Below are positions 4,111 to 45,829 of a stretch of DNA of 64,000 nucleotides, piece by piece. Origin of the DNA: a virus; IMG/VR virus record IMGVR_UViG_3300044956_000431, positions 45,985 to 109,984 of that record. One strand, 5' to 3'. Under the pieces are notes generated by a model. The model saw only the letters and a program-made list of their open reading frames with translations, ran no database searches and was not told the origin of the DNA. The translations under genes were made by a program, and so were the position numbers. Position 1 is the first letter of the stretch, and each line of letters begins with the position of its first letter.

Positions 4111-5976
4111 TCAGTCCAGATCAGGATTATTGCGGACAAAGTTTGCCTGGCTAAAACGCATGCGATCAACGTATTTCATGCCCTGCCCTACATAACCTTC
4201 GTGTCCAGGTTCTCCGTTGATTGATGCTTGTACATCGTGTGCTTGTGCATCTAGTTGACGCACTAACTCATTTTTAAGACTGCTTAGATCTAAGAATGCT
4301 TGAAACACAGCGGCCAGGGCTGCTTTGTTTTCGTTGGCCCATTCAAAAATACGCAGTGCTTTAGTGGATTCCTTGGCTTGTACCCAAGGCCCAAACCCGG
4401 CCAACAAATCATTGAAGTTTCCTTCTCGAACACGGCTATTGATATATGCCTTCATTAACTGTGGAAGGTTGCTGATTTTCCTAGCTCTGAGCTCTTGAGG
4501 GTTAAAGAGCTGGTCAATGGCCGCACCTTGTGCTGTGGCTATCTTTTTTAGATTTGCCACAGTGCTGGCGTTGAGTTTGATATTTCTAGGTTCTTTAAGG
4601 CTGGGGTCAAGAATCAACAAGCCCGGCACTGGTTTGAGCGCGGCTGCTCGTATGGGCTGAGGTTGTGCGCCAGGCGCTTCTAACGAAGTGTGTATTACTA
4701 CAGCGGCTTCGCTCTTGCCAACCTGCTGGCCCAAGGACGAGTCTGCAGGAATAGAATATGTCACAGTGTTGGGTTGGAAAACATAGGAACCGTTGACTAG
4801 CTGTGGTGTTTGACTGTACAACAAATCGCCCTGAATATATCCGCGGAAGTCTGGCGGTACAGCGGCCCTTAGTAGTGGAAATAGCTTTTGGTACAGTGCT
4901 ACAAGTTCACCACGCTCGCCACCACGTTGAGCCATGATCTGTGCGATCTGTTGCGGGCTAGTGGCCAGGCCATCATAGCCTTTGGCTAAAAATCCACTTT
5001 TGTCTGTGAGCACAAAATCACCGTTGGGTTTGCGACCAAATATAATAGCTGGCTTGCCATCCCATTTCACTGTGGCAGTGTTGGGTTCACGTGCTGTGTT
5101 GACAATACCTGTGATGGCTTGTTGTATGCCGCGACTGCCCATGTCAAATACCATGTCTTCAGGATGCTCAATACGCACACCCTCCATGATCATAATCATG
5201 CCTTGGTTCACAATACGATCACGCAGGCGTGCCAAGAAGTGTACGTCATTTTCTGCCACAGGTGCATCAGGATCAGTCAGGCCTTCACGTGCTAGATATT
5301 CTCTGAAGTCAGCCAGTTTGGCATCACGCTGTGGGTCTCGGGCCAGGGCCGCATAAATGCTTTCTACGTTTTTTAAGTTTTCCCGAGTGGACTTTTTGCC
5401 CAACAATGCCTGTGCCACATAATCAGGATCTAAACCGCCGTCGACTAGTTCATTGGTAGTTCTGCTGAACATGCCATTGGCGCCAACTTTGAGTCCTAGA
5501 TACTTGGCTATGGAGCTCATCAATACATTGCGTACCATGACTTTGTATGCACTGTTTTCGCCACCAGCATAAAAGAATGTGCCCCAATCTAAGTTAGGGA
5601 AAAACATAAAGTCTGTTTGAACAAACCCACGTTTTGGGTCGCCAGCAATGGGTGTGCGCAAATGAACTTCGCCACTCTTTTTGACCCATAACTTTGGATC
5701 TTCACCGTGGCTTTGCGCCCACTGAATAAGTTTGGCTGCCAGTTGATCCTTGCTAACTTCATTGACATCAACTGCCATATCTAAATCGCCTGATGTTGTG
5801 TCTCGCCCTGTGGAACCTAGCCAGCGTTCTCGAGGAAAATCTATACCTGTGAGTTGCTCCAGCCACATCACAGTGGCAGGAACATCGCTTTGATTGATAC
5901 GTTGTGTGAGTGGGTTGCCGTCTTTGTCTTTGAAGACGTTGCCACCTTCAAATAGTTGCCGCACCGCTACCACCAA
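4111..5976 (-). CDS. Fusion of Pol-beta-like nucleotidyltransferase and ligase-like domains
   Basis: About 620 residues. The N-terminal part has a Pol-beta-type nucleotidyltransferase signature: Gly54-Ser55 (LGSTGR), Asp64/Asp66 (SGDLDMAVD) and a third Asp at 122 (QTDFMFF). The second half has TVKWDGKPAIIFGR (Lys304, Asp306, Gly307), matching the KxDG motif I of the ATP-dependent DNA/RNA ligase and capping-enzyme superfamily. A possible motif III follows (GYIQGDLLYS, about 380-388). Similar proteins of unknown role occur in other T4-like environmental phages. A function in nucleic-acid end joining or nucleotidyl transfer is inference. The start is uncertain: no ATG, with TTG at 5976 and GTG codons shortly after. 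It overlaps the preceding gene by 29 bp. Confidence 0.8.
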   Translation of the reverse strand: MVVAVRQLFEGGNVFKDKDGNPLTQRINQSDVPATVMWLEQLTGIDFPRERWLGSTGRDTTSGDLDMAVDVNEVSKDQLAAKLIQWAQSHGEDPKLWVKKSGEVHLRTPIAGDPKRGFVQTDFMFFPNLDWGTFFYAGGENSAYKVMVRNVLMSSIAKYLGLKVGANGMFSRTTNELVDGGLDPDYVAQALLGKKSTRENLKNVESIYAALARDPQRDAKLADFREYLAREGLTDPDAPVAENDVHFLARLRDRIVNQGMIMIMEGVRIEHPEDMVFDMGSRGIQQAITGIVNTAREPNTATVKWDGKPAIIFGRKPNGDFVLTDKSGFLAKGYDGLATSPQQIAQIMAQRGGERGELVALYQKLFPLLRAAVPPDFRGYIQGDLLYSQTPQLVNGSYVFQPNTVTYSIPADSSLGQQVGKSEAAVVIHTSLEAPGAQPQPIRAAALKPVPGLLILDPSLKEPRNIKLNASTVANLKKIATAQGAAIDQLFNPQELRARKISNLPQLMKAYINSRVREGNFNDLLAGFGPWVQAKESTKALRIFEWANENKAALAAVFQAFLDLSSLKNELVRQLDAQAHDVQASINGEPGHEGYVGQGMKYVDRMRFSQANFVRNNPDLD

Positions 5977-6619
5977 TGGTTATAGTGCTACCTGACGCGG
6001 CCGCGGCTTGATCCATGGCCTGTTGTACTAGATCAGAATGTAATGCAGTGTAGGTAGGTACCTCTGCGCCACGAGCATCCACGAAACGTCCTTTGGAGCT
6101 ATCCCAGGTATAAGTTACCTTGCTGGTTTTTCTGCCCACAGTGGTTGTGGTATCTATTTTAGTACCATTGGGTATGACAAACACAGGGTTGGTTTGTGCT
6201 TTGAGATATCCTGGGATAAAATGTTGGGTGAAATAGTTTTTTACTGCTTCAATACTCTGCACAGGTATCAATGTTTTTAATGGTGCGTTGTTAACGTTGA
6301 CCTTGGCTGCTTTTTCTAGCCAGGATCTAAAAAGTCCGCGGTATTCATCATCAGTAAAAGGCTTACCTGCGGCAGCTTCTATTCGTTTTAATTCTTTGTC
6401 CCAGGCCGCTGTCCATGCATTGGCCAGCATACCTGCCTGTTGTTTGGCTTTTTCAGCTCCGACCTTGTCAGACAGATCTTTGTACCATTGAGGAGTTATC
6501 TCACCACGAAATACTGAGAGAGCTTGTTTGATTTTTTGTGCGTTCTGTGCTTGACTGGCCTTGCCTATAGCTCTTAGATCATCAAACACACCTTCATTGA
6601 CTATGTCATTGACTTTCAT
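5948..6619 (-). CDS. Conserved phage protein with short capsid-targeting-like N terminus
   Basis: A 223-residue protein starting MKVNDIVNEGVFDDL. The N terminus resembles the short leader MKxxxxxxE seen on T4 internal head proteins, though the -3 residue is Val rather than Leu/Ile. The body is helical (residues 15-90), followed by a Thr-rich beta region (TTTVGRKTSKVTYTWDSSKG) and an Ala/Gly-rich tail. The start overlaps the preceding gene and the end overlaps the nucleotidyltransferase-ligase gene, so they form one operon. Function unknown. Confidence 0.7.
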   Translation of the reverse strand: MKVNDIVNEGVFDDLRAIGKASQAQNAQKIKQALSVFRGEITPQWYKDLSDKVGAEKAKQQAGMLANAWTAAWDKELKRIEAAAGKPFTDDEYRGLFRSWLEKAAKVNVNNAPLKTLIPVQSIEAVKNYFTQHFIPGYLKAQTNPVFVIPNGTKIDTTTTVGRKTSKVTYTWDSSKGRFVDARGAEVPTYTALHSDLVQQAMDQAAAASGSTITIGGSGAATI

Positions 6620-41755: not shown

Positions 41756-42055
41756 TCAAGGTTGGTAGTACACTATTTCGCCTGTGGCAGGGTCAAAATA
41801 CAAGGACTGTAAACCAGTGGTGTCATTGACCACACGCACATTGCCAAGAAAAACATTTGCTCCTGTTGCCTGTATGACTTTGGTCAACTTCCCTGTGGCA
41901 TTGCCAATGTATATTTCGTTGGTATTGATATTTACCGTCATCTCTGCAGGACGAGCGTTGCCAGTGTAGTTGGCTATGCTTTCCTGAGCATTGTCCTTCA
42001 TTACTGTACGACTGATACCAGTCAAGTTATCATATGGTGGTGGAGGATTGGCCAT
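41756..42055 (-). CDS. Small probable virion protein
   Basis: 99 residues starting MANPPPPYDNLTGISR. The protein is beta-rich with polar turns (EMTVNINTNEIYIGNATGKLT, split here at ATG; then FLGNVRVVNDTTGLQ and YFDPATGEIVYYQ). This is typical of small tail or fibre modules. Coupled to the preceding gene by TAATG. The 147 bp between its stop and the SNase start hold no recognisable gene. Function unknown. Confidence 0.65.
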   Translation of the reverse strand: MANPPPPYDNLTGISRTVMKDNAQESIANYTGNARPAEMTVNINTNEIYIGNATGKLTKVIQATGANVFLGNVRVVNDTTGLQSLYFDPATGEIVYYQP

Positions 42056-42429
42056 TATTGTGGATATCCTTTAAAACCTTTGATTGGACTGACTTTGTTA
42101 CCGCCAGGCGGTTCTTCACTGCGCATATCGCCATCATTGAGATCGTCCCAGACGGCGCCAGCGGCTTTGTAGGCCATCTTAAGCATGTCTTGTTCTTCTC
42201 GTGTGTATGGTTGTGCTGTTTTTTCTTTACCAAACCAACTTTTCTTATCCATGTCAGGAACAAATGTTCCATCTGTACAGGCCGCGGCCATCATTACACG
42301 ATTAAGAGTATAGTCAGTGTTCCACTTTTCATTATCGGCAAAGGTATTCAATCCACGTGTTGGGAAACGCTTTCTTTTAGAAAGTTTTGCGTTGCCATCA
42401 GACTCTGACAAAAACTCCCATGCTCTCAC
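42055..42429 (-). CDS. Conserved head-region protein with capsid-targeting-like N terminus
   Basis: About 124 residues. The GTG at 42429 is preferred because an AAGGAG sits 5 bp before it; another GTG is 3 bp upstream. The start MRAWEFLSESDGN has the FLSE|S pattern of a T4 capsid-targeting sequence with a gp21-type cut site. Later stretches (NRVMMAAACTDGTFVPDMD, AQPYTREEQDMLKMAYKAAG) are conserved in other T4-like phages. Likely packaged in or linked to the head (inference). Confidence 0.7.
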   Translation of the reverse strand: MRAWEFLSESDGNAKLSKRKRFPTRGLNTFADNEKWNTDYTLNRVMMAAACTDGTFVPDMDKKSWFGKEKTAQPYTREEQDMLKMAYKAAGAVWDDLNDGDMRSEEPPGGNKVSPIKGFKGYPQ

Positions 42430-42732: not shown

Positions 42733-43362
42733 TTACCACGCACGGCAAGACCAATATCTTGCCTTTGTTCTTGGTCCTGGATTATCGCAGTTGTGTCTAG
42801 CACGGAAACTACGACGACGTGCAGGATTTGATTTTTTAATCTTCATTGTTTTCTGGCCAGCACGCTTGGCTGACGTACCACCATGACCAAAGTTTACTTT
42901 TTTGATGTTGCCTGAGCTGGGATCGCGCACGTACACTTTGAACTTTTTGACATCACCTCTGGTAGGCTTGCCCAGTGCAACCTTGCGCCCGTGATATTCT
43001 GCTTCTCCCATGGGATCTTGCGGACCGCTGCCTTGAGATGCAAGGTTGCCTACGTCACTGCTAGGTTCCTCCTCTGTAGGATCCTCACTGACCAACACAT
43101 CGTCCACACTCATTTCCTCATCCACACAGCTACAGGCTGCTTGCATACACACTGAACATAGGTCTTCTACATGATAGCCATAACTTTCCAGTATGGCAAT
43201 CAACTTGTCATCTGCTTCGATGCACAGTCTGTCTTCTTCCACAGCAATGATATGACTTTCCAACAAGCAATCTTCCTTGATATTGATAGCAAAGTCATCT
43301 CCCACTGCTGGATTTTCCATCCACTGCTCTGATTCAACGATGTAATCTTTTAGAGATTTCAT
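42733..43362 (-). CDS. Head-region protein with capsid-targeting-like N terminus and Cys motif
   Basis: 209 residues starting MKSLKDYIVESEQWME, with the DYIVE|S pattern of a capsid-targeting leader. Residues about 50-75 carry KLIAILESYGYHVEDLCSVC followed by MQAACSC, giving CxxCx4CxC; the neighbour at 43359-45218 has two copies of a like unit. The C-terminal half is basic (GDVKKFKVYVRDPSSGNIKK, NPARRRSFRARHNCDNPGPR) and conserved in T4-like phages. It probably binds DNA or is carried inside the capsid (inference). ATGA coupling to the preceding gene. Confidence 0.75.
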   Translation of the reverse strand: MKSLKDYIVESEQWMENPAVGDDFAINIKEDCLLESHIIAVEEDRLCIEADDKLIAILESYGYHVEDLCSVCMQAACSCVDEEMSVDDVLVSEDPTEEEPSSDVGNLASQGSGPQDPMGEAEYHGRKVALGKPTRGDVKKFKVYVRDPSSGNIKKVNFGHGGTSAKRAGQKTMKIKKSNPARRRSFRARHNCDNPGPRTKARYWSCRAW

Positions 43363-45218
43363 GACGATTTGTACTGTTTGTAAAGACTCATCAAGTTAGA
43401 TTCCATTTCTGATTCTGAAACCTGTTGAGTTGGTACCACTGGTATGGTTGTCATGCCAGTGACTTTGTTCTTGTTCAACCCGCCTGCTATGGTCTTGGTC
43501 ATGTAGTCAGTGCTTTGCATTTCTGGCTTAGGTGCATTGGCTGCATCTTCTTCCATTTGTTCACAGCAACAATCTTGTTGTCCACACGCAGGGCATGCTT
43601 CTTTGTGTCCAGCGCCCGACCCCATGCCTGCCAGTTTCAGTATTTGTGCAAGTTTGATAGCATCTTCTTCCATTTGTTCACAGCCACAATCTTGTTGTCC
43701 ACACGCAGGGCATGCTTCTTTGTATCCAGCACCCGACCCCATGCCTGCCAGTTTCAGTATTTGTGCAAGTTTGATAGCATCTTCATCTGTGGCGTTAACT
43801 GACAGACTCTTCTTACCGTTTTCACCCATGCTCATGTTGATGCTCATGCCTTCTGACAACACTGTCTTGAGCTTGTTGTCAAAACTTTCTAAGATTTGGC
43901 CTTCGTACACGCCTTTCCCAAACACCATACCTTTTTTGCCTTTGCTGCCTGTGGGGGCAGATGCTACTGATCCGGCTACTGTGCTTTCTTCAGTTTCTTC
44001 TTTGCCTTTTTTCTTAGCCATCTTGGTAGCTGTGGCATACATGACTTCTTCGCCGCGCTCGCCATAGCGTTTTTCAAAATCGCCTTTGGATTTCTTCATT
44101 GACTTTACAAACTTTTCGCGCTTGGCCATTTCAGGCTTAGAGAGTTTGCGCTCGGGCATCATGCCTTCTTCGTCTTTTTCAACTTTCTGGCTGGCCATAT
44201 AGTCACGTGCTGTGTCAATGTAGTCCATGGCCTTGGTGATCTTGCTCTGTACCCACTCAGGTAGATTTTGGTCATCACTTAGGATGCGATGTAGTTCTTT
44301 GGCGGCTGCTTCGATTGTATGTAGTTGCTCTTTGGCCATGTCGCCTTCGCGATCATATTCGCCACGATCTACTAACTGTGTTTCATCTTCCTTCATGCGA
44401 AGTAGTTTGCTACGACCAGTTGGGCCTTTGGCGCCAAGTTTACGGCCTGAACCTTTGGGACGGCCTTTTTTCTTGTCTTTGAGATTACCGTGTTCGTCGT
44501 AGTCGTCATCAGTGGTTTCATCACGATTGGTACGATAGCCATACTTTTTGTGTATGTTGCGTTCGCTTTCAGGATCCTTTTGATTTTTAGTCATTGCGCC
44601 TTGTAGGCCTTTGAGCAATCGCATGTCTAGTTCGTCAAGACTTTCTTCACGCACTGTTTCCATATCGCCATCACCGTCAAGATCGGCTTTCTTTAATCCA
44701 GCGGCACGGGCCTTGGCCAGATTGCCTGTGAACTTGTTGCCTTCTTCCATGTCAGCTTCGTCCATCTTGTCATGTTTGGCACGAATCCGGGCCATAGTTT
44801 CTTTGCTGGCGCCTTCACGTCCGGCCTTTTGTAGGGCCCTCATGCCTGTCTCACCATATTTTTTCTTGCCTAGATAAGCCTGTAATGCACTCTCATCCAT
44901 GTCTGATTCTTCTATGCTTTCCTTGGCGCGAAGTTTTTTCAATACAGCACCAGCAACTTTTTCGCCGCGCTCGGCTGACCCATAGGCCTTACCAGCTTTG
45001 GCTGCGATAGTGGCAAAGGCTTTGCCTGGCTTGCCAATGTCTTTGCCGGCACGTGCCTTTTTAGCAGAATAGTCTCTGGTTGATTCGTCAACTTCTCCGG
45101 CAGCTTTTTTCATAGATTCTTTTTTGTTGCCGTCTTTGTCCAGATCAAGGAAGTCAGGTTTACTACCTCGACCTTCCAACAGGTTCATCTTACCTAGTAT
45201 TTCGTACATGTTGTTCAT
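43359..45218 (-). CDS. Large charged internal-head-protein candidate with tandem Cys repeat
   Basis: 619 residues starting MNNMYEILGKMNLLEGRGS; very rich in Lys, Glu and Gly, low in aromatic residues. It contains many LxE-like sites fit for the gp21 prohead protease (NLLE|G, QILE|S, VLSE|G). Two EF-hand-like calcium loops are suggested (DLDKDGNKKE, DLDGDGDME). Around residues 480-560 a 39-residue unit is repeated twice in tandem (DAIKLAQILKLAGMGSGAG, then CPACGQQDCGCEQMEE). PEWVQSKITKAMDYIDTARD is a conserved block of head-region proteins. Role in the head or ejected with DNA is inferred. Confidence 0.7.
   Translation of the reverse strand: MNNMYEILGKMNLLEGRGSKPDFLDLDKDGNKKESMKKAAGEVDESTRDYSAKKARAGKDIGKPGKAFATIAAKAGKAYGSAERGEKVAGAVLKKLRAKESIEESDMDESALQAYLGKKKYGETGMRALQKAGREGASKETMARIRAKHDKMDEADMEEGNKFTGNLAKARAAGLKKADLDGDGDMETVREESLDELDMRLLKGLQGAMTKNQKDPESERNIHKKYGYRTNRDETTDDDYDEHGNLKDKKKGRPKGSGRKLGAKGPTGRSKLLRMKEDETQLVDRGEYDREGDMAKEQLHTIEAAAKELHRILSDDQNLPEWVQSKITKAMDYIDTARDYMASQKVEKDEEGMMPERKLSKPEMAKREKFVKSMKKSKGDFEKRYGERGEEVMYATATKMAKKKGKEETEESTVAGSVASAPTGSKGKKGMVFGKGVYEGQILESFDNKLKTVLSEGMSINMSMGENGKKSLSVNATDEDAIKLAQILKLAGMGSGAGYKEACPACGQQDCGCEQMEEDAIKLAQILKLAGMGSGAGHKEACPACGQQDCCCEQMEEDAANAPKPEMQSTDYMTKTIAGGLNKNKVTGMTTIPVVPTQQVSESEMESNLMSLYKQYKSS
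43544..43777 (-). repeat. Tandem duplication of a 117-bp unit
   Basis: Two nearly identical 117-bp copies (43544-43660 and 43661-43777) encode 39 residues each with the motif CxxCx4CxC. Differences are few: one residue near the middle (Tyr/His) and Gly/Cys in the last motif. This points to a recent in-frame duplication. Confidence 0.9.
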
Positions 45219-45229
45219 TTTTGTTTTCC

Positions 45230-45829
45230 TTATCTGGCTGCGCTGTGTACAGCTGGTATTTTGTTGGTACCACCAATGGGACTCTTCTGTCCCATTGGGA
45301 AGTCGTCTGTGGTCACTGCTGGTGGTGTCTTGCCACCAGCCACTGTGAACGAACTCTTGTATGCGTTCTTGACCACTGCATGTTCTTTGGGTGCCGCAGA
45401 ATAATCTTTCTTGAGATCACGTTGCTGTTTATCTGGGGCAGGATAATCAGTATCTGTGAGAAGATTTTTGTTTTCATCATCTTGTTTAATAACTTCTGCG
45501 TCAACGCTGTCAGCATATTTTTTATCAGTCATTGCAATACGATTTGGATCTAATCCCAACAGTTGAGCTATTTGGGTGATCTGTGGAGGTGTTGCTGGAT
45601 AGTTAAAAATAACATCAACAAAAGTCATGCTCTCGTTTGGAAACTTAGGAAAATCAGGCAGGCTTTTTTGCACTGGTGTTTTCTTGGTATCGCTCATCGA
45701 CACTACATCAAACTGCTTGAGTTTTTCTTTGAATCCACTCATAAAACCTGCGGGCAAATCTCCGGCGATTTTGATGCGATAATCGTATGTGTGTTTAGAT
45801 TCTGTTAGGTATTCTGCAAAAGTTTTCAT
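45230..45829 (-). CDS. Head-region protein with strong capsid-targeting-like N terminus
   Basis: 199 residues starting MKTFAEYLTESKHTYDY. The first ten residues are the closest in this window to the T4 internal-protein leader (MKTYQEFIAE), with LTE|S as the likely cut. A conserved block follows (IKIAGDLPAGFMSGFKEKLK, FVDVIFNYPATPPQITQIAQ), seen in other T4-like phages; the C-terminal half is polar and low complexity (LLTDTDYPAPDKQQRD). It may be ejected with phage DNA (inference). A late box lies at 45847-45854. Confidence 0.75.
   Translation of the reverse strand: MKTFAEYLTESKHTYDYRIKIAGDLPAGFMSGFKEKLKQFDVVSMSDTKKTPVQKSLPDFPKFPNESMTFVDVIFNYPATPPQITQIAQLLGLDPNRIAMTDKKYADSVDAEVIKQDDENKNLLTDTDYPAPDKQQRDLKKDYSAAPKEHAVVKNAYKSSFTVAGGKTPPAVTTDDFPMGQKSPIGGTNKIPAVHSAAR

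What the first reader, a model, noticed from the sequence alone, without database searches (positions are those of the whole stretch)
4111..5976. Pol-beta-type nucleotidyltransferase fused to a ligase-like domain
Seen: GS...DLD...TDF near residues 54-122 and KWDG at 304-307 in one chain. Known: the first set is the Pol-beta superfamily metal site, and KxDG is motif I of ATP-dependent ligases and capping enzymes. Inference: one protein may both add nucleotides and join ends, fitting a repair or RNA-modification system carried by this phage group.
Basis: partly seen in the sequence, partly recalled or inferred. Interest (0 to 1): 0.66.

Follow-up and report, generated by a model that had tools for sequence, protein, structure and literature searches.

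The report
Phage protein fusing nucleotide-adder to ligase
One phage gene encodes a single protein that joins a DNA-polymerase-X-like nucleotide-adding domain to an RNA-ligase-like domain, and its tip looks like the removable tag that T4-type phages use to load proteins into the virus head, so it may be an end-repair enzyme delivered with the phage DNA.

Summary
ORF 4111-5976(-), most likely starting at GTG 5964 (617 aa), carries both motif sets exactly as described, in one chain. The full fusion recurs in many viral contigs. AlphaFold models are confident (pLDDT 91.7 whole, 95.5 for the C-half alone). The N-half superposes on family X DNA polymerases (Z 10.2), with an invariant DxD...D triad. 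The C-half is Pfam DUF6267, a family of unknown function. Its 50 best structural matches shown are all RNA or DNA ligases (best Z 7.7), and KxDG, GD, EG and the motif-V lysine are invariant.

New here: the partner of DUF6267 is either this Pol-X-like domain or an NMNAT/cytidylyltransferase-like HxGH enzyme, never both at one locus. Jumbo phages pair the Pol-X-like domain with a divergent RNA-ligase-like gene. 150 of 159 Pol-X-like proteins carry a short leader ending in [LI]xE directly before the conserved GG start, like the capsid-targeting leader of T4 internal proteins. Virion presence is reported for relatives, not for this protein.

Likely role: end repair (add nucleotides, then seal), possibly injected from the head. 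Activity, substrate and packaging are untested. New variant of the known ligase plus Pol-beta repair theme.

The parts
4111..5964 (-). CDS of the fusion protein, 617 aa, GTG start (TTG at 5976 is less likely)
   Evidence: homologues align from this start
5947..5964 (-). Leader MRQLFE, residues 1-6; possible prohead-protease site after E6
   Evidence: 150/159 relatives have [LI]xE here, 5 VxE, 4 start directly before GG; residues 1-5 pLDDT <50
5215..5946 (-). Pol-beta/family-X-like nucleotidyltransferase domain, residues 7-250
   Evidence: AF2 and VIA Z 10.2 on residues 12-201; invariant residues
5779..5787 (-). D60-L-D62, first two catalytic aspartates
   Evidence: invariant in 19 diverse sequences
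5611..5613 (-). D118 of QTDFM, third catalytic aspartate
   Evidence: invariant
5179..5214 (-). Low-confidence inter-domain linker, residues 251-262
   Evidence: pLDDT <50
4114..5178 (-). DUF6267 (PF19782), ligase-fold domain, residues 263-617
   Evidence: Pfam E 1.2e-41; AF2 pLDDT 95.5 pTM 0.90; ligases are the best structural matches
5056..5067 (-). K300-W-D-G303, ligase motif I with the putative adenylated lysine
   Evidence: invariant in 41 diverse sequences
4825..4827 (-). D380 of QGDLLY, motif III-like
   Evidence: invariant; most ligases have Glu here
4174..4200 (-). E589-G-Y-V ... K597, motif IV-like and V-like
   Evidence: E589, G590, K597 and R601 invariant
5948..6619 (-). Upstream overlapping gene, 223 aa, unknown; N-terminus MKVNDIVNE|G resembles the leader
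   Evidence: not homologous to the genes upstream of the jumbo-phage pairs

Best explanation
The protein is a two-domain nucleic-acid end-repair enzyme of a T4-like contractile-tailed phage. The N-half, a family-X-like Pol-beta nucleotidyltransferase, adds one or a few nucleotides to a damaged 3' end. The C-half, the DUF6267 ligase-fold domain, is adenylated on Lys300 by ATP and seals the end through 5'-adenylate. The short N-terminal leader probably directs the chain into the prohead core and is cut after Glu6, so that mature GGNVF... protein enters the cell with the DNA. Shown here: one chain, both folds by prediction, conserved active-site residues, widespread coupling, conserved leader pattern. 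Inferred: the activities, their order, the substrate (RNA, such as nuclease-cleaved tRNA, slightly favoured over DNA) and the packaging.
For: Fusion in 98 ORFs, reversed order in 1, and adjacent genes in most others. N-half: VIA Z 10.2, rmsd 3.4, 156-164 residues on Pol beta 139-335. C-half: the 50 best rows are all RNA or DNA ligases, led by Naegleria RNA ligase (Z 7.7, rmsd 4.0, 180 aligned), then T4 Rnl1, TbREL1, Trl1, T4 Rnl2. Jumbo phages Phosso, Atu_ph07 and PA5oct place the N-domain next to, or in PA5oct three genes downstream of, a KxDG protein; the Atu_ph07 one hits RNA_ligase PF09414 at E 0.002. The profile of those three matches DUF6267 from motif I to V (E 8e-6 with 5 vs 3 sequences). 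The phage has its own ATP-dependent DNA ligase, which argues for a special role. Leader: 150/159 N-domain proteins with [LI]xE directly before GG, 59/73 stand-alone DUF6267 proteins with [LI]xE directly before xKNTH. T4 IPII and IPIII begin MKTYQEFIAE|A; residues 4 and 7 target and 8 and 10 process (PMC9026906). Homologues without leader begin at the same point (M|GG, M|AKNTH). gp21-type protease PF03420 occurs in 11 of 15 related or reference records, T4 included. The PA5oct N-domain protein is annotated as structural by ESI-MS/MS.
Against: No enzymatic test. Z for the C-half is below 8, which the tool calls middling, and Foldseek finds no PDB match for it below E 0.05. No Pfam Pol X, NTP_transf_2 or ligase profile hits the window protein. 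The larger DUF6267 profile matched the jumbo-phage KxDG family only over motifs IV-V. Exchange of the N-half for an HxGH enzyme, a class not known to extend nucleic acids, is hard to fit with simple nucleotide replacement. The leader here is 6 residues, against 10-19 for T4 IPs. No prohead protease was found in the partial own record. In S-SZBM1 the leader did not predict MS detection genome-wide.
Confidence: 0.5

Rival explanations
1. The two halves act on a small molecule or nucleotide cofactor: the N-half transfers NMP to a metabolite, as NMNAT or cytidylyltransferases do, and DUF6267 uses or consumes the product, for example NAD-linked chemistry.
For: DUF6267 is paired or fused with an HxGH enzyme (PF01467; nearest NCBIfam nicotinate nucleotide adenylyltransferase, E 2.9e-6) in cyanophage-type loci, and no locus has both partner types. 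Pol-beta-fold enzymes can modify small molecules (general knowledge).
Against: The N-half superposes on palm and thumb of DNA polymerases beta and lambda, more than a minimal nucleotidyltransferase. The C-half resembles polynucleotide ligases. The HxGH function is itself unproven.
Confidence: 0.2
2. It is a DNA gap-filling and nick-sealing enzyme (short-patch repair of damaged or incoming phage DNA) rather than an RNA repair enzyme.
For: Best structural matches of the N-half are DNA polymerases beta, lambda, mu and TdT; DNA ligases are also among the C-half matches.
Against: Best C-half matches are RNA ligases. The phage already has an ATP-dependent DNA ligase. No 8-kDa lyase or OB-fold domain is visible in the 617 residues.
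Confidence: 0.2
3. A host-takeover modifier: the Pol-beta-like half nucleotidylates host proteins or tRNAs (as AMPylators or MenT-like toxins do) and the ligase-like half has lost ligation.
For: Possible virion delivery, and T4 Alt as precedent for injected modifying enzymes (PMC5512222). Asp instead of Glu in the motif III position.
Against: Full conservation of motif I lysine, EG and motif V lysine argues for active covalent chemistry.
Confidence: 0.1
4. The leader is not a capsid-targeting sequence but a conserved N-terminal element of the fold or of translation coupling; the enzyme works in the cytoplasm only.
For: No protease in the partial record. S-SZBM1 leader-bearing proteins were not enriched among MS-detected ones (1 of 4 strict-pattern proteins detected, Fisher p 1.0). 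Sequences share descent: the N-domain set falls in only 11 clusters.
Against: The same [LI]xE pattern sits exactly at the domain start of two unrelated families, is modelled as disordered, and is replaced by a bare Met in several homologues. The S-SZBM1 cytidylyltransferase with leader MRFRQFIIE|A is in the virion, while its neighbour DUF6267, without leader, was not detected.
Confidence: 0.35

Closest known systems
[quoted passage not shown]
   Same: Same logic: a Pol-beta enzyme thought to restore lost nucleotides beside an RNA ligase (PMC7824862).
   Different: The window N-half has no RlaP profile hit or profile similarity. Atu_ph07 carries a true RlaP as well as the N-domain gene. Here the pair is one chain, and the ligase is DUF6267.
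DNA polymerase family X (Pol beta, lambda, mu, TdT)
   Same: Palm and thumb arrangement; DxD...D triad.
   Different: About 11-15% identity over the aligned part, no lyase or HhH domain, no Pfam Pol X profile hit.
RNA ligases Rnl1, Rnl2, Naegleria Rnl, Trl1
   Same: Nucleotidyltransferase core with motifs I, IV and V.
   Different: About 10-15% identity, Asp in motif III, a large helical insertion between the IIIa-like strands and motif IV, no Rnl profile hit.
DUF6267 of cyanophages (S-PM2, P-RSM6, S-SZBM1)
   Same: Same domain family.
   Different: There the partner is an HxGH cytidylyltransferase/NMNAT-like enzyme, not a Pol-beta one.
T4 internal proteins IPII/IPIII and Alt
   Same: Short N-terminal leader ending in [LI]xE for IPII and IPIII.
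   Different: Mature parts unrelated; packaging unproven here; leader of 6 rather than 10 residues.

Membership tests
Pol-beta nucleotidyltransferase superfamily, family X | GS...DxD and a third Asp at the metal site | tested here: met
   G50, D60, D62, D118 invariant in 19 diverse sequences; S51 is S or T
Pol-beta nucleotidyltransferase superfamily, family X | Palm-thumb fold | tested here: met
   VIA Z 10.2, rmsd 3.4, about 160 residues on Pol beta
Pol-beta nucleotidyltransferase superfamily, family X | Match to Pfam Pol X / NTP_transf_2 profiles | tested here: not met
   none for the window protein; so it is called X-like, not a family X member
RlaP (PF10127) | Profile match | tested here: not met
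   no hit; hhalign E 0.6
Covalent nucleotidyltransferase / polynucleotide ligase superfamily | Motif I KxDG | tested here: met
   K300-W-D-G invariant in 41
Covalent nucleotidyltransferase / polynucleotide ligase superfamily | Motifs IV (EG) and V (K) | tested here: met
   E589, G590, K597 invariant; assignment by order and models, not by residue-level superposition
Covalent nucleotidyltransferase / polynucleotide ligase superfamily | Motif III Glu | tested here: inconclusive
   Asp380 invariant instead
Covalent nucleotidyltransferase / polynucleotide ligase superfamily | Ligase nucleotidyltransferase fold | tested here: met
   the 50 best rows are all ligases, Z 5.4-7.7; Z is below 8, so supportive rather than conclusive
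Rnl1 / Rnl2 RNA ligases | Match to their Pfam profiles | tested here: not met
   no hit for the window protein
DUF6267 (PF19782) | Score over gathering cut-off | tested here: met
   143.8 bits against 27
T4-type capsid-targeted internal protein | N-terminal [LI]xE leader | tested here: met
T4-type capsid-targeted internal protein | gp21-type protease in the same phage | tested here: inconclusive
   absent from the partial own record, present in relatives
T4-type capsid-targeted internal protein | Processed protein inside virions | not testable with these tools
   only indirect: PA5oct annotation and the HxGH partner in S-SZBM1 and S-CREM2 virions
Polymerase / ligase activity | Nucleotide addition and self-adenylation | not testable with these tools
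   needs purified protein

The most novel reading that the evidence does not exclude
Many T4-like and jumbo phages carry, in the virion, an enzyme pair made of a ligase-fold domain (DUF6267 or a relative) and an exchangeable nucleotidyltransferase (Pol-X-like or NMNAT-like), put into the head by a cleavable leader, so that end repair or end modification begins as the DNA enters. In this phage group both halves are one chain.
Probability: 0.35. Interest if true: 0.78.

Novelty: new variant of a known kind. Interest (0 to 1): 0.62.

Why it matters
It gives a concrete hypothesis for a Pfam family of unknown function present in well over a hundred sequenced phage records: DUF6267 is a ligase-fold protein that works with a nucleotidyltransferase. 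If the leader works as in T4, it also suggests how phages deliver repair or modifying enzymes with their DNA, and offers an easy sequence signature for finding more such cargo. The role of the NMNAT-like enzyme repeatedly found in cyanophage virions would become testable together with its ligase-like partner.

Tried and rejected
RlaP membership: rejected. Replicative DNA ligase of this phage: unlikely, because a canonical one is present. Homology of the upstream gene 5948-6619 with the genes upstream of the jumbo-phage pairs: none. T4-like late promoters TATAAATA: 5 against 2.2 expected, not significant, dropped. Bacterial genome relatives of the fusion: none found with the two patterns used. 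PDB sequence matches: none meaningful. HMM link from DUF6267 to the jumbo-phage KxDG family: the hits fell in the helical region and are probably spurious. Leader versus virion MS detection across S-SZBM1: no enrichment. Literature on DUF6267: no paper held.

Full report
Observation. The ORF 4111-5976(-) is real and holds every motif reported, in one chain. Homologues begin at the GTG at 5964 (M-RQLFE-GGNVFKD), giving 617 residues; this numbering is used below. 422 stretches in the viral collection encode relatives; the 80 best were kept and all carry the fusion.

N-half. The sequence has no useful Pfam, PHROG or NCBIfam hit outside DUF6267. An alignment of 46 relatives gave an AlphaFold model with mean pLDDT 91.7, below 50 only at residues 1-5 and the linker 251-262. 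Foldseek and VIA place residues 12-201 on the palm and thumb of DNA polymerases beta, lambda and mu (VIA Z 10.2, rmsd 3.4). D60, D62 and D118 are invariant in 19 diverse members. pTM of the whole chain is only 0.62, so the relative placement of the two domains is not reliable.

C-half. Residues 269-614 are Pfam DUF6267 (E 1.2e-41). Modelled alone with 40 diverse relatives it gives pLDDT 95.5 and pTM 0.90. Foldseek finds ligases as its top but weak hits (best E 0.05). VIA ranks only RNA and DNA ligases in its 50 best rows, Naegleria RNA ligase first (Z 7.7, rmsd 4.0, 180 aligned). Single Z values below 8 are middling by the tool's own note; the uniformity of the list together with invariant K300-W-D-G303, D380, E589-G590 and K597 makes the ligase fold the best reading. 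Motif III has Asp where most ligases have Glu, and a long helical segment lies between the IIIa-like strands and motif IV.

Partnering. Across 249 loci, 98 ORFs are N-domain plus DUF6267 fusions, one is the reverse order (L138), and most remaining N-domain genes stand beside a DUF6267 gene. In cyanophage-type loci DUF6267 instead stands next to, or is fused with (S-PM2), an HxGH enzyme (PF01467; nearest NCBIfam model nicotinate nucleotide adenylyltransferase). No locus held both partner types. The loci were sampled by similarity to chosen queries, so these counts are not frequencies in nature. In jumbo phages Phosso, Atu_ph07 and PA5oct the N-domain lies next to, or three genes downstream of, a divergent KxDG protein with motifs IV and V; the Atu_ph07 one matches RNA_ligase at E 0.002. 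Nine N-domain loci show no DUF6267 within the fetched flanks.

Leader. 150 of 159 N-domain proteins carry [LI]xE directly before GG, 5 carry VxE, and 4 begin with Met directly before GG. Of 73 stand-alone DUF6267 proteins, 59 carry [LI]xE directly before xKNTH, most others have [LI]xEA a little upstream, and P-RSM6 begins M|AKNTH. Weighted by cluster (11 and 10 clusters) the pattern persists: P1 is Glu in every leader-bearing N-domain cluster. T4 IPII and IPIII begin MKTYQEFIAE|A; residues 4 and 7 carry targeting and 8 and 10 processing (PMC9026906). Leaders such as MENFADFITE|S keep the same register. Other window genes have similar N-termini: 45230-45829 MKTFAEYLTE|S, 42055-42429 MRAWEFLSE|S, 43359-45218 ...NLLE|G. 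A gp21-type protease is present in 11 of 15 related or reference records, T4 included, but was not found in the partial own record.

Virion evidence from relatives. PA5oct EST35_0231 (N-domain) is annotated as structural by ESI-MS/MS. The HxGH partner was detected in virions of S-SZBM1 and S-CREM2, and others are cited (PMC9146016, PMC10665884, PMC9602691); authors of two of these papers note that carry-over was not excluded. In S-SZBM1 the detected HxGH protein begins MRFRQFIIE|A, while its neighbour DUF6267 begins M|AKNTH and is not in the table. A genome-wide test in S-SZBM1 gave no enrichment (1 of 4 strict-pattern proteins detected), so this contrast is a single case.

Function. The closest described logic is RlaP plus RNA ligase, where the Pol-beta enzyme is predicted to restore lost nucleotides before ligation (PMC7824862). 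The N-half is not RlaP, and Atu_ph07 has both. The phage has a separate ATP-dependent DNA ligase, so the fusion is not needed for ordinary nick sealing. I therefore favour special end repair, RNA slightly over DNA, with a small-molecule role as the main rival because of the HxGH exchange. Activity and packaging are not shown.

Verdict. The broader system is a new variant of a known kind; interest 0.62.

Noticed in passing
L138:2759-4666 (+): Reverse-order fusion, DUF6267 then Pol-X-like domain, with the site-like LTE|GGNVF at the domain junction.
   Followed up: partly
L147 and L163:4702-5658; L096:4657-5685: A second Pol-beta-like gene directly after the N-domain gene; the L147/L163 copy starts MRAKEFILE|GG, the L096 one is weakly NTP_transf_2-like.
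   Followed up: partly
window:42055-42429, 43359-45218, 45230-45829: Genes in the virion region with T4-IP-like leaders (MRAWEFLSE, NLLE|G, MKTFAEYLTE); functions unknown.
   Followed up: partly
L086:7558-12393 (Agrobacterium phage Atu_ph07): After the N-domain gene come several similar-sized ORFs; the two I translated start with LLE|T and LIE|N and look related to each other; function not identified by Pfam.
   Followed up: no
window:9303-12927 and L251:3792-4523: Several nearby genes beginning with GDS-type motifs (GGCSIST, FGDSFA, YGDSYS, FGDSWT), perhaps SGNH-hydrolase-like, in a phage.
   Followed up: no
window:409-795; L253:6074-6403; L251:3206-3799; L252:9203-10402: The phage record appears to carry IscU- and IscA-like, ClpP-like and ClpX-like genes, judged by eye from sequence.
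   Followed up: no
window:6879-7886: Radical-SAM-like protein (CNAACPLCP) between the helicase gene and the fusion operon, judged by eye.
   Followed up: no
phages S-PM2, P-RSM6, S-SZBM1: These DUF6267-bearing cyanophages show no PF01068 DNA ligase, unlike the window phage.
   Followed up: no
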